Notes under the pieces: generated by a model
Told to the model about the DNA's origin: nothing
Seen by the model: only the letters and a program-made list of their open reading frames with translations
Databases searched by the model: none
Program-made: the position numbers and the translations under genes
Shown here: positions 28,096 to 31,691 of the stretch, in pieces
Layout of the letters: every line of letters starts with the position of its first letter
Position numbering within the stretch: position 1 is the first letter of the stretch
From: Campylobacterota bacterium
GTDB taxonomy: Bacteria > Babelota > Babeliae > Babelales > Chromulinivoraceae
Reading direction: 5' to 3'
Assembly (NCBI GenBank): GCA_002721975.1
Contig: PBME01000013.1
Coordinates: 11,440-43,505, forward strand
DNA length: 32,066 bases

Positions 28096-29046
28096 TTATA
28101 CAGCAAAAAATATGAGTAGCATAGAAACAAGTAGTCCATAGATTGGAAATGTGTCTATCATAGCTAAAGCAATTAAAGCAGTTTTAGATAAAGATGAATA
28201 TTGCGGTAAATTATATGCTATTTGTTCACAGGTTGCGCCGCCTGTGCGTCCAGAGCTAAAGCCCGGTGCTAATGTTGATATGCCAATACATAATGCACTA
28301 CAAATCATAGCAAATGCTTTAAGAAAAGCTTGACCATCTATAGTAGTTGTTATAATTGTTAAGGATACAAGTAATGCAAAAATTAATGGTGTTTCAATCA
28401 TTGCTTCGCTAACAAATGTAAAAGTCATAATTTTACCAAATGCTTTTCTATTAAAGCCAACTACTTTACAAGCAGAATATGCAAACATGCTTAAACCAAT
28501 TGCAGGTCCTATAGAACCTAATCCAATGCTCAAACCTGTAGCAAATAATTGCATTGCTATCGGCAACGAAGTTGCTTGAGCGAGTTGTCCTTTGATAAGT
28601 AAGGCAATAATAAAACCAAACATGTTAGGTGTCATAATTAATGTTTGGGTAATAAGCATGATGTTTAAAATTTTATTGTTCATAAATGGTTGTCGTGCAA
28701 TTGATTGGCAAGCAGCTTGTGCAGGAGCAGATGACGCTATACCAACTGCAAGGCCTGAAAGACCAATCGCAAAGGCAATACCTGTTACGCTTAATGTGGT
28801 ATACAGATTAATTGGAATGCTTTTATCAATAATAAGCATAATAGATAAAACTGCACCTAAAATAGATGTTGTTTCTGTGATTGCAATGCCAATAATGCAT
28901 AATTTAGAAATGTTACTACTAGCGCTAGGTTGTGTTTGTAATGCTTGGATAGCTTTTTTGCCAATTAGTCCTTGTCCTATACCAGCGCCAATTGCTGAAA
29001 ATGCAACTGGTATTGCTACTGCAACATGATACAATAATTCAATCAT
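28096..29046 (-). CDS. atpE: F-type ATP synthase proteolipid (c) subunit with four fused hairpins
   Basis: A bacterial c subunit normally has about 80 residues and one two-helix hairpin. This 316-residue protein has eight hydrophobic segments forming four c-like hairpins (about 1-75, 80-150, 160-235, 240-316). Hairpin 1 has GIGQG (Q25) and AITETTSI (E58, T59), like the sodium-type site. Hairpin 2 keeps the polar loop ARQP but has Q134 where the ion-binding acid should be. Hairpin 3 has E214 (with E218) in SEAMIETP. Hairpin 4 has D298 in MIDTFPIYG. Three acids per four hairpins would be expected in the ring. It overlaps atpB by ATGA and lies directly downstream of it, the usual a-c order, which supports the assignment. 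The b, delta, alpha, gamma, beta and epsilon genes are not in the window. Confidence 0.9.
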   Translation of the reverse strand: MIELLYHVAVAIPVAFSAIGAGIGQGLIGKKAIQALQTQPSASSNISKLCIIGIAITETTSILGAVLSIMLIIDKSIPINLYTTLSVTGIAFAIGLSGLAVGIASSAPAQAACQSIARQPFMNNKILNIMLITQTLIMTPNMFGFIIALLIKGQLAQATSLPIAMQLFATGLSIGLGSIGPAIGLSMFAYSACKVVGFNRKAFGKIMTFTFVSEAMIETPLIFALLVSLTIITTTIDGQAFLKAFAMICSALCIGISTLAPGFSSGRTGGATCEQIAYNLPQYSSLSKTALIALAMIDTFPIYGLLVSMLLIFFAV

Positions 29047-29807
29047 GATTCTACCTTTGTATGAGATGCATCTTCTTGCTCTTCTTCGTGAACAATTTCC
29101 ATAGATAAGTATGTGAGTGTTAACATAGCAAATACAAATGCTTGAATAAGTCCTTCAAATATTCCAAATACGAAAAGCATACCAAGATTGATACCACTTA
29201 TTAATGCAAATGTTTGCAGTACGATAGAACTAGCAACAACTTTGCCATATAAACTGCTGATTATAAAACCTCCAAAAATATTTCCAAATAAACGAAAAGA
29301 TAACGAAATAACCGAGGTTACTTTACCAACAATGTGAAGAGGTAACATAATAAAAAAAGGTTCTACCAACTCTGCAAGATATGCTTTTAAGCCATTTACT
29401 TTTAAAGAATAGAATTGTACATAGAAAAATGAGATAAGTCCTAAAGCAAGAGTTGTATTTAAATCTTTTGTAGGTTCTTCAAACCATGGAAAAATTTGAA
29501 TTGTATTACATAGTAAGATAAACGTAAACAGCGAGAGTATGAATGATAAATGATTTACTGGTGCAGATTTTAAAGTTTGTTCCACAAGGTCTTTAAATCC
29601 ATAAACATATTGTAACGCAACATATCTTATAAGACTGCTTTCTTTATGTAAGCAACGATTGACTAAGATACTTGTTATTGTAATAAGCAGTAAGATGAAA
29701 AATGTGCTACTAACAGTATCTGCTTGAACTGTCCAGAAAGCATCATGTAATCCAAACTGAGCAAATGGTTTCCAAACGTGACCTTGTAGCATGTCATGAT
29801 TGTCCAT
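29043..29807 (-). CDS. atpB: F-type ATP synthase subunit a
   Basis: The 254-residue Fo stator subunit forms the ion half-channels beside the c ring. The essential arginine is R172 in SLSFRLFGNIFGGF. The conserved last helices read IQAFVFAMLTLTYLSMEIVH, and about six membrane segments are visible. Length is in the normal range. AAAGG lies directly before the ATG. Its TGA overlaps the start of the c subunit gene. It follows two small membrane protein genes, the place usually held by atpI or atpQR. Confidence 0.94.
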   Translation of the reverse strand: MDNHDMLQGHVWKPFAQFGLHDAFWTVQADTVSSTFFILLLITITSILVNRCLHKESSLIRYVALQYVYGFKDLVEQTLKSAPVNHLSFILSLFTFILLCNTIQIFPWFEEPTKDLNTTLALGLISFFYVQFYSLKVNGLKAYLAELVEPFFIMLPLHIVGKVTSVISLSFRLFGNIFGGFIISSLYGKVVASSIVLQTFALISGINLGMLFVFGIFEGLIQAFVFAMLTLTYLSMEIVHEEEQEDASHTKVES

Positions 29808-29825: not shown

Positions 29826-30092
29826 TTATAATTTTTTATGCGTTATCATTATAGTTGTGTTTATATAAGATCCTAAAAATACTACTAACAAAAGTATAAG
29901 ATTGCTTTGGTTAAATTGCAATATACTATAGATAAAACTGATAAAAATAATGAATCTGATAATAGAAAAAACAATATCGATATGTGGTTTTTTATATATC
30001 CACCCGATATGTTTACCCAGAATTAAAAGAATTCCACAAAGAAACCCTGTAAAAGCACTTAAAAAAATTGAAGCATATATAGAATCAATCAT
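29826..30092 (-). CDS. Small three-helix membrane protein in the ATP synthase operon (AtpR/AtpI-like position)
   Basis: An 88-residue protein with three hydrophobic helices (about 5-27, 38-57, 62-82). An arginine lies within the second (FSIIRFIIFI) and histidines near the first loop. In N-type ATPase operons a three-helix protein with buried basic residues (AtpR) stands just before atpB. In ordinary operons AtpI stands there. The sequence itself is too short and variable for me to assign. Its ATG overlaps the stop of the preceding gene by one base (TAATG). It may help assemble or charge-balance the unusual c ring. Confidence 0.6.
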   Translation of the reverse strand: MIDSIYASIFLSAFTGFLCGILLILGKHIGWIYKKPHIDIVFSIIRFIIFISFIYSILQFNQSNLILLLVVFLGSYINTTIMITHKKL

Positions 30093-30295
30093 TATTTTTT
30101 ATTTCCAAATACAAATTCTTGTAAAAGTATGTATATGATTCTTAATGTAATTGCTCCAAGGATAATTTGCTCCCAAGTTACTGTTGCTAAAACACTTTTT
30201 TGTATTTTTATTGCAATTTCACCGTTAGTAAATAATAAAATTACAATAAGTAGAATACATAGTTTGTGTAATTCATTACGTTTTTTTTCATTCAT
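30092..30295 (-). CDS. Small two-helix membrane protein in the ATP synthase operon (AtpQ/AtpZ-like position)
   Basis: A 67-residue protein with a charged N-terminus, one helix around 12-31 and a second around 42-62. AAGGA precedes the ATG. It comes directly before the three-helix protein, matching the Q-R-B-E order of N-ATPase operons or an AtpZ/AtpI pair. No sequence signature decides between these. Translational overlap with the next gene supports a real coding sequence. Confidence 0.58.
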   Translation of the reverse strand: MNEKKRNELHKLCILLIVILLFTNGEIAIKIQKSVLATVTWEQIILGAITLRIIYILLQEFVFGNKK

Positions 30296-30305
30296 AGATA
30301 TCCTT

Positions 30306-31691
30306 TCAGTTTTTTTGATTCCAGTATTCAGAAATAATAGTATGCGATCCAGTAATCACCAATAGATCTTGTGGGTCGTGTAATTGTTTTGAAACACTAT
30401 GAAAAGCAACTTGAAAATTTTCGTATGTTGTTACTTTGATTTTTGCATGATGTGCAGATGTTAAAAATTTATCTATATTCCAAGAAGATGTTTTTATAGA
30501 AAGATTATCTGTAGTAGGTAAACAGAGTGTTAATGTGCCAGGATTTTTTTTGAAAAAGTAACGTATTGTTTTAATAAATTCATGGGGATTTAATTCATTG
30601 TTGTAAGCACTAACTATAAAAAAAATATTTTTAAAAGGTTGCTGATAGTTTAAAAGACGAATACCAAGTAATAAATTTTGTAAAGCATCTATGTTGTGAG
30701 CAGTATCTAACAAAACAGTACTTTGTTTTTGTTTGATAATTTGAAAACGATTAGGAATGCTTGTAGAGACATGGTTCCAAAAGTATTCGATAGTATTGTT
30801 TGTAGGTTGCTTTAATAATTGTTGCTTTGCTGTAAGGCGTGGCCTACCGCGTTGTTTCTTAGAAGTGCGCAACAAGCTATTTTTATTAACAGGTTGATGC
30901 TTTAGTGCTGTTTCTATATATGTTTGAGCAATCCGCTCAGCAAGAGCTGCGCAACGTCCATGTAGCTGTTCGTAAGGATATGGTAACGGAGCTAGTTTTC
31001 TTATAGGCATGATCCATTGACATGCAGACTCTTCTGTTAAAGTTGCAATTTTGTGTAGTAAAATTTTGCTTTGATCGCCAGATGTAACATAGGTTTGAGG
31101 CTTAATATCTTTAAAAAAAGATTTTATAACTTCATTTCTTTTGATTTCATCTGTTATAACAATTCTAGTAATACCAATAATTGTAGGAGCGCAGATGGTT
31201 GTTGGATCATATTCATCTAAATGTTGTTGTTCTAAAATAGCAACATCAACTTTTTTCTCTTGAAAATATAATAATGCCATAGTTGTTAATATTTCATGAG
31301 TTGAAGCATTAATGTTATCTTTTTTGATTGTGTTAATAACTTTATTGGCTAATTTTGTAAATGTTTCTTGGCATATTAAATTATTGTTATAAGAAAAGCG
31401 TTCGTTATAGGTATTAAAATGTGGTGAAGAAAAAACTCCAACAGTTAAATTTTCTGTTTTTAGTAGTTCTGTTAGATAATGAATCGTAGTACTTTTACCA
31501 CTTGTTCCTGTGATGGTAATTGTAGGAGTTTTGTGAGCAATGTTGCTAAAAACAGCATTTATTTGTTGCATGTTTTTAGCAGTAGAGGTTTTCCAATTAT
31601 TATCAAGGTAAGAAACAATCTCATCGTAATGTAACTGATGTTGATCTAAGTAACCTTGTTTTCTTTGTTTTTGCAATTCAGAATGTGGCAT
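30306..31691 (-). CDS. folC: Folylpolyglutamate/dihydrofolate synthase (Mur ligase family)
   Basis: The 461-residue product has the FolC-type P-loop ITGTSGKSTT (60-69), then VGVFSSPHFNTYNERF, the acidic ligand region ILEQQHLDEYDPT and, in the C-terminal domain, LLDTAHNIDALQ. FolC adds glutamate to folates or dihydropteroate with ATP. No other folate genes are present here, so glutamylation of salvaged folate is the modest reading. Between the central and C-terminal domains lies a basic insert with KKQRGRPRLTAKQQ, which resembles an AT-hook and is odd for this enzyme. It makes the protein about 35 residues longer than usual. GGAGAA precedes the ATG. It is the first gene of the operon with the Fo genes. 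Confidence 0.88.
   Translation of the reverse strand: MPHSELQKQRKQGYLDQHQLHYDEIVSYLDNNWKTSTAKNMQQINAVFSNIAHKTPTITITGTSGKSTTIHYLTELLKTENLTVGVFSSPHFNTYNERFSYNNNLICQETFTKLANKVINTIKKDNINASTHEILTTMALLYFQEKKVDVAILEQQHLDEYDPTTICAPTIIGITRIVITDEIKRNEVIKSFFKDIKPQTYVTSGDQSKILLHKIATLTEESACQWIMPIRKLAPLPYPYEQLHGRCAALAERIAQTYIETALKHQPVNKNSLLRTSKKQRGRPRLTAKQQLLKQPTNNTIEYFWNHVSTSIPNRFQIIKQKQSTVLLDTAHNIDALQNLLLGIRLLNYQQPFKNIFFIVSAYNNELNPHEFIKTIRYFFKKNPGTLTLCLPTTDNLSIKTSSWNIDKFLTSAHHAKIKVTTYENFQVAFHSVSKQLHDPQDLLVITGSHTIISEYWNQKN

What the first reader, a model, noticed from the sequence alone, without database searches (positions are those of the whole stretch)
28096..29046. ATP synthase c subunit built from four fused hairpins
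The 316-residue protein directly after atpB contains four successive c-like hairpins with acids E58, E214 and D298, while hairpin 2 has Q134. Ordinary bacterial c subunits have one hairpin. Multi-hairpin c subunits are known mainly from V-type enzymes and a few archaea. A ring of such units would have three ion sites per four hairpins, which changes the ion-to-ATP ratio and may adapt the enzyme to hydrolysis or to a low driving force in a host-dependent cell.
Basis: partly seen in the sequence, partly recalled or inferred. Interest (0 to 1): 0.85.

Follow-up and report, generated by a model that had tools for sequence, protein, structure and literature searches.

The report
Four-in-one rotor subunit of ATP synthase
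All host-dependent bacteria of the phylum Babelota (Dependentiae) that were checked carry, besides an ordinary ATP-synthase rotor protein, a second one made of four rotor units fused end to end, one of which has usually lost its ion-binding acid, so their rotary motor probably runs on an uneven, mixed ring.

Summary
The 316-aa protein at 28096-29046 (minus strand) is four PF00137 hairpins in one frame, each above the Pfam cut-off. By alignment the ion-site column is E58 / M138 / E218 / D298, exactly 80 residues apart. AlphaFold2 gives eight packed helices (pLDDT 97); the nearest solved structure is the fused c1 of Acetobacterium woodii. It is not a local oddity: across 101 Babelota genomes (19 families) the fused c4 follows the only full-length atpB wherever examined. 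One stator a, one F1 and two kinds of c point to a mixed ring, as in A. woodii but with a four-hairpin unit. The four hairpins are four separate old lineages. The HP2 acid was lost once in the ancestor of a 34-genome clade (E to Q, then M/V in this family) and independently in one other genome; 12 of 49 c4 keep all four acids. No held paper reports it. The mixed ring, stoichiometry and ion are inferred, not shown.

The parts
28096..29046 (-). fused four-hairpin ATP synthase c subunit ('c4'), 316 aa
   Evidence: ORF; four PF00137 stretches; AF2 eight-helix model pLDDT 97.3, pTM 0.92; conserved in relatives
28819..29046 (-). hairpin 1 (residues 1-76); ion site E58 = 28873-28875; Q25 and T59 complete a Na+-type Q..ET motif
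   Evidence: alignment of 49 homologues: E46 D3 at the site
28579..28818 (-). hairpin 2 (residues 77-156); ion site lost: M138 = 28633-28635
   Evidence: column Q26 E14 M7 V1 G1 in 49 homologues
28339..28578 (-). hairpin 3 (residues 157-236); ion site E218 = 28393-28395 (not E214)
   Evidence: column E44 G2 Q2 S1; E214 column E23 Q15 and others
28099..28338 (-). hairpin 4 (residues 237-316); ion site D298 = 28153-28155
   Evidence: column D28 E20 G1
29043..29807 (-). atpB, stator subunit a (254 aa), the only copy in this genome; overlaps c4 by 4 bp; essential Arg = R172
   Evidence: PF00119 E 1.4e-35; single copy; R172 in 49 of 49
29826..30092 (-). 88-aa three-helix membrane protein, probably AtpI-like (c-ring assembly factor family)
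   Evidence: a small membrane ORF of about 75-135 aa sits directly before atpB in most relatives; 5 of 18 members match PF03899 ATP-synt_I weakly, best E 0.0035, below the cut-off
30092..30295 (-). 67-aa small membrane ORF overlapping the AtpI-like gene; function unknown
   Evidence: no Pfam/NCBIfam match; homologues only in overlapping loci of the same genome among those fetched

Best explanation
c4 is a genuine rotor subunit of the single F-type ATP synthase of Babelota. It is built into one mixed c ring together with several copies of the ordinary single-hairpin c1: most likely one c4 per ring (expressed next to, and often overlapping, the single a subunit) plus enough c1 to close a ring of usual size. 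In the mixed ring the three acid-bearing hairpins of c4 carry ions past Arg172 of subunit a like any c unit, while hairpin 2 passes as a neutral, empty position. The ring therefore has one site fewer than hairpins in most of the phylum (in this genome too) and an equal number in the clade that kept all four acids. The built-in neutral step slightly lowers the ion/ATP ratio, which suits ATP-driven pumping in cells that import host ATP; since the fusion is older than the loss, its first role was more likely to fix ring assembly or composition. SHOWN: the gene, four hairpins, site residues, fold prediction, co-occurrence with c1, single a, ancient vertical inheritance. INFERRED: co-assembly in one ring, one c4 per ring, passage of the empty hairpin, hydrolysis mode, benefit.
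For: One full-length atpB per genome in 49 of 49 relatives and in all 68 phylum genomes that are at least 90% complete. PF00137 matches are 4 + 1 in nearly all of 101 genomes, never more than 5. c1 heads c1-b-b'-delta-alpha in every c1 locus long enough to tell. The four genomes without c1 (G043, G070, G071, G030) also lack alpha, the neighbour of c1, so an assembly gap explains it. F1: alpha, delta, beta, epsilon found in this genome; gamma in 91 of 101 genomes. The c4 profile's best solved relative is 4bem_J, the duplicated c1 of A. woodii (E 1.6e-24), which sits in a ring with nine single-hairpin chains; Foldseek gives the same top match. The HP2 change E to Q repeats the A. woodii / C. aceticum change (first hairpin Q..ET, second Q..QT; PMC7911925). 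Arg172 of a is invariant. HP1-HP4 each form one branch of a tree spanning 20 diverse genomes. c4 overlaps or abuts atpB (-58 to +28 bp; -4 bp most common).
Against: No direct evidence of co-assembly: c1 and c4 lie in separate operons, and a homomeric c4 ring or alternating rings cannot be excluded by sequence. HP3 and HP4 rarely or never have the full Na+ motif (15 of 49 and 0 of 49), and four c4 keep only two acids, so c4 might tolerate loss of transport. Ring geometry was not modelled: no multimer prediction and no model coordinates were available.
Confidence: 0.6

Rival explanations
1. Two interchangeable rings: the single a subunit and F1 work either with a ring of c1 only or with a ring of c4 only (or a variable mix), chosen by differential expression of the two operons, so that the ion/ATP ratio can be shifted between phases of the infection cycle.
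For: The two c genes lie in different operons in every genome examined, so their ratio could vary; one shared a.
Against: No precedent of ring swapping known to me; there is no expression data; a c4-only ring restricts ring size to multiples of four hairpins.
Confidence: 0.14
2. c4 alone forms the working ring next to the single a, and c1 is a minor or redundant subunit.
For: c4 is the gene next to atpB in all 49 relatives, and atpB is the subunit that touches the ring.
Against: c1 is present wherever its locus is assembled, heads the operon with b, delta and alpha, and keeps its acid (E41 D1) and Na+-type motif in 36 of 42, which is not how a redundant gene behaves.
Confidence: 0.1
3. c4 is not a permanent rotor part but an assembly template or placeholder: a partial ring of four hairpins that nucleates or sizes the c1 ring and may leave.
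For: Its acids are less strictly kept than those of c1: four of 49 have two acids, and HP2 is neutral in 35 of 49; an AtpI-like assembly gene sits upstream.
Against: HP1 keeps D/E in 49 of 49, HP4 in 48 and HP3 in 44, as expected of hairpins that carry ions past subunit a; an assembly-only protein would not need them.
Confidence: 0.1
4. Artefact: frameshift, chimeric contig or mis-called fusion of separate single-hairpin genes.
For: The genome is a 22-contig draft with a duplicated contig end elsewhere.
Against: The same uninterrupted 312-335 aa ORF in 49 of 49 relatives, 41 named records and the complete genome AP025250.1; each hairpin is its own ancient lineage.
Confidence: 0.01

Closest known systems
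Heteromeric F/V-hybrid c ring of the Na+ F1Fo ATP synthase of Acetobacterium woodii (and Clostridium aceticum): c1 (two hairpins) + c2/c3
   Same: F-type enzyme with both a fused and an ordinary c; the fused one has a hairpin whose acid became Q; first hairpin keeps Q..ET; best sequence and fold match of c4
   Different: Four hairpins instead of two; c4 and c1 in separate operons, c4 coupled to atpB; acid loss partial and clade-dependent; different phylum; ring not yet isolated; HP2 in this family is M/V, not Q
V-type c/K subunits (Enterococcus hirae NtpK 2BL2, eukaryotic c, c', c'')
   Same: Fused hairpins with an acid lost from one of them; second-best fold match
   Different: Two hairpins with one acid; V/A-type stator and head. 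Here the stator is F-type AtpB and F1 is alpha/beta/delta/epsilon
Multi-hairpin K subunits of methanogens (Methanocaldococcus three hairpins, Methanopyrus thirteen)
   Same: Tandem fusion of more than two hairpins in one chain (PMC2359735)
   Different: Archaeal A-type enzymes; Methanopyrus keeps the complete Na+ ligands in all 13 hairpins; the passages read do not mention a bacterial F-type or four-hairpin example
N-ATPase (alternate F1Fo, TIGR03322 c subunit)
   Same: NCBIfam alt_F1F0_F0_C matches, and small membrane genes precede atpB
   Different: 84.6 bits against a cut-off of 130.85; no AtpR match; single-hairpin c; F1 genes not in the same operon

Membership tests
ATP synthase c subunit (PF00137) | hairpin of two helices matching the profile | tested here: met
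   four stretches, each over the 24-bit cut-off
ATP synthase c subunit (PF00137) | ion-binding carboxylate in the second helix | tested here: met
   E58, E218, D298; absent in hairpin 2 (M138)
ATP synthase c subunit (PF00137) | c-ring-type packing of hairpins | tested here: met
   monomer model pLDDT 97.3; best PDB folds are c rings
ATP synthase c subunit (PF00137) | incorporation in a rotor ring | not testable with these tools
   needs isolation of the ring
A. woodii-type heteromeric F-type rotor | one F-type a and F1 with both a fused and a single-hairpin c | tested here: met
   one full-length atpB, one c4, one c1 per genome; gamma not found in this draft but present in 91 of 101 genomes
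A. woodii-type heteromeric F-type rotor | fused c has two hairpins, one without acid | tested here: not met
   four hairpins; acids 4 in 12, 3 in 33, 2 in 4 of 49
A. woodii-type heteromeric F-type rotor | both c genes in one atp operon | tested here: not met
   c4 after atpB, c1 before b/delta/alpha elsewhere
A. woodii-type heteromeric F-type rotor | Na+-ligand motif Q..E(S/T) | tested here: inconclusive
   c1 36 of 42; HP1 31 of 49; HP3 15 of 49; HP2 and HP4 0 of 49
A. woodii-type heteromeric F-type rotor | both c kinds in the same ring | not testable with these tools
   no protein-level data
V-type ATPase K/c | V/A-type stator and catalytic subunits | tested here: not met
   AtpB PF00119 and F1 alpha/delta/beta/epsilon instead
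N-ATPase | c subunit above the TIGR03322 cut-off, AtpR, one operon | tested here: not met
   84.6 against 130.85 bits; no AtpR match; genes dispersed

The most novel reading that the evidence does not exclude
A whole bacterial phylum runs its only ATP synthase on rings whose c1:c4 composition is adjustable, so the same stator and F1 can work at different ion/ATP ratios (synthesis or pumping) according to the expression of two separate c operons; in most lineages the fused unit also carries a permanently empty step.
Probability: 0.12. Interest if true: 0.92.

Novelty: new variant of a known kind. Interest (0 to 1): 0.74.

Why it matters
Fused c subunits underlie the classic argument that rotary enzymes shift between making and spending ATP by losing ion sites from duplicated hairpins. 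Here is a phylum-wide natural series in F-type enzymes: same four-hairpin chain, with all acids, with one neutralised (E, then Q, then M/V), or with two lost, always beside a normal c and a single a. It separates the fusion from the loss (the fusion came first), and makes testable whether mixed rings, a built-in assembly unit, or a changed ion/ATP ratio was selected in cells that import ATP from their host. It would also be the first four-hairpin c of an F-type enzyme that I know of.

Tried and rejected
Plus-strand reading of the coordinates: gives only stops. Chance or misassembly: rejected by conservation in all relatives and a complete genome. Second atpB serving c1: none in 49 relatives; the only second hits in the phylum are two short fragments. 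True loss of c1 in G043/G070/G071/G030: their alpha gene is missing too, so an assembly gap is the better explanation. Missing gamma as a biological feature: PF00231 fails only in 10 of 101 genomes, so it is a gap of this draft. N-ATPase or AtpR identity of the upstream small genes: no support; AtpI-like is weak. Recent origin of the hairpins by duplication of c1 or homogenisation between hairpins: rejected, each hairpin position is a separate branch across the families sampled. The 44-row alignment was too diverse for a collection scan; the 12-row one worked and returned 41 loci, titled Dependentiae, Babeliales, TM6 or only 'bacterium', except one titled 'Proteobacteria'. Its two peptide patterns come from Babelota sequences, so it does not exclude distant four-hairpin c subunits elsewhere. 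Ring-size estimate from the curvature of the model: not possible, no coordinates supplied.

Full report
WHAT IS THERE. The protein lies on the minus strand at 28096-29046, 316 aa, uninterrupted. Pfam recognises four ATP-synt_C stretches, and on DNA each passes the curated cut-off alone (46.4, 36.5, 36.0, 42.6 bits against 24). Its start codon overlaps the end of atpB by 4 bp. Before atpB come an 88-aa and a 67-aa small membrane ORF, then a folC-like Mur ligase; after c4 comes cysK. The window ends at the end of contig C13 of a 979-kb, 91.5% complete draft.

REGISTER OF THE ION SITES. Aligning c4 of 49 genomes puts the carboxylate column at E58, M138, E218 and D298, exactly 80 residues apart. 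Over 49 homologues: HP1 E46 D3; HP2 Q26 E14 M7 V1 G1; HP3 E44 G2 Q2 S1; HP4 D28 E20 G1. Thus 12 c4 keep four acids, 33 three, 4 two. The seven relatives in the window's own family are all EMED or EVED, like the window.

FOLD. AlphaFold2 with the 44-row alignment gives eight long helices in four hairpins, pLDDT 97.3, pTM 0.92. Foldseek's best PDB match is 4bem_J, the duplicated c1 of the A. woodii ring, then the E. hirae K ring; the sequence profile gives the same best match, 1.6e-24. No chain with four hairpins appears among the c-type matches.

THE SECOND c. The same genome has an ordinary 86-aa c (c1) at C7:86196, heading c1-b-b'-delta-alpha; beta-epsilon lie elsewhere; there is only one atpB. 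In 49 relatives (19 families, 40 genera) every genome has c4 directly after its single full-length atpB, and in the 101-genome survey the PF00137 pattern is 4 + 1 in nearly all, never more than 5; atpB is found in 68 of 68 genomes at least 90% complete. Genomes G043, G070, G071 and G030 show no c1, but they also lack alpha, the neighbour of c1, so the locus is unassembled. Every c1 locus long enough shows c1 followed by delta and alpha, with recognisable b genes in most. Gamma is absent from this draft but present in 91 of 101 genomes.

HISTORY. In a tree of 100 hairpins from 20 genomes, HP1, HP2, HP3, HP4 and c1 each form one branch: the four-hairpin chain predates the divergence of the families and was inherited without homogenisation. 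Relations between the five branches are unresolved (support 40/29). On an independent AtpB tree the HP2 acid state needs two changes (shuffled mean about 12): two deep clades, 15 genomes mostly EEEE and 34 genomes all without the HP2 acid, plus an independent loss in G017. So fusion most likely came first and the neutral hairpin later (this reads the acid state as ancestral, as in ordinary c).

ION. c1 has the Na+-type Q / E / S-T triplet in 36 of 42, HP1 in 31 of 49, HP3 in 15 of 49, HP2 and HP4 in none. Na+ coupling is possible but not established.

PHYSIOLOGY. All 49 relatives carry ATP/ADP translocase-family genes, none of 14 control genomes does. [quoted passage not shown] The Babela paper lists three translocases and does not mention ATP synthase (PMC4378268).

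MECHANISM. One stator a with invariant Arg172, one F1 and two c kinds are most simply reconciled by a mixed ring, as in A. woodii, where the 4bem entry holds nine c2 chains and one two-hairpin c1 chain and the reported ring has 10 sites (PMC7793690), and C. aceticum, where the first hairpin keeps Q..ET and the second has Q..QT (PMC7911925). c4's position right behind atpB, often overlapping it, suggests roughly one c4 per a (inference). The ring would then hold 4 + n hairpins and 3 + n sites here. The AtpI-like gene upstream (weak PF03899 support) fits a ring-assembly locus; AtpI is described as an assembly factor in the A. woodii / C. aceticum operon. The small gain in ATP-driven pumping from one empty position is a plausible but unproven reason for the HP2 loss. 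It does not explain the fusion itself, which the EEEE clade keeps with all acids, so a role in ring assembly or composition is more likely primary.

NOVELTY. Two-hairpin c in bacteria, and three- and thirteen-hairpin K in archaea, are known. I found no held paper on a four-hairpin c or on the c subunit of Dependentiae; subscription papers are mostly not in that library.

LIMITS. No protein-level evidence; stoichiometry, ion and direction of operation are inferred; mostly metagenome-assembled genomes, with a few single-contig ones.

Noticed in passing
L006:9831-14829 and L012:6074-10722 (contigs C7 and C15 of the window's genome): The 3' part of atpA plus about 4 kb (763-aa protein, recombinase-like ORFs, Cys-rich proteins) occurs twice with near-identical sequence at a contig end: a strain variant or a real duplication.
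   Followed up: partly
L006:8431-9290: Two consecutive b-like genes (124 and 161 aa) between c1 and delta, conserved in position in many relatives but without any significant Pfam match: a diverged b/b' pair.
   Followed up: partly
AtpB of relatives (e.g. L087:3010-3903, L088:2556-3626): AtpB is longer (273-356 aa against about 240-255) in the clade whose c4 mostly keeps all four acids, and again in family f3 (269-309 aa); meaning of the insertion unknown.
   Followed up: no
window 30306-31691: A folC-like Mur ligase is the gene upstream of the atpI-like/atpB/c4 genes in many families, a conserved synteny outside the ATP synthase.
   Followed up: no
window 30092-30295: 67-aa membrane ORF overlapping the AtpI-like gene, found only in this genome among the fetched loci.
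   Followed up: partly
   Followed up: partly
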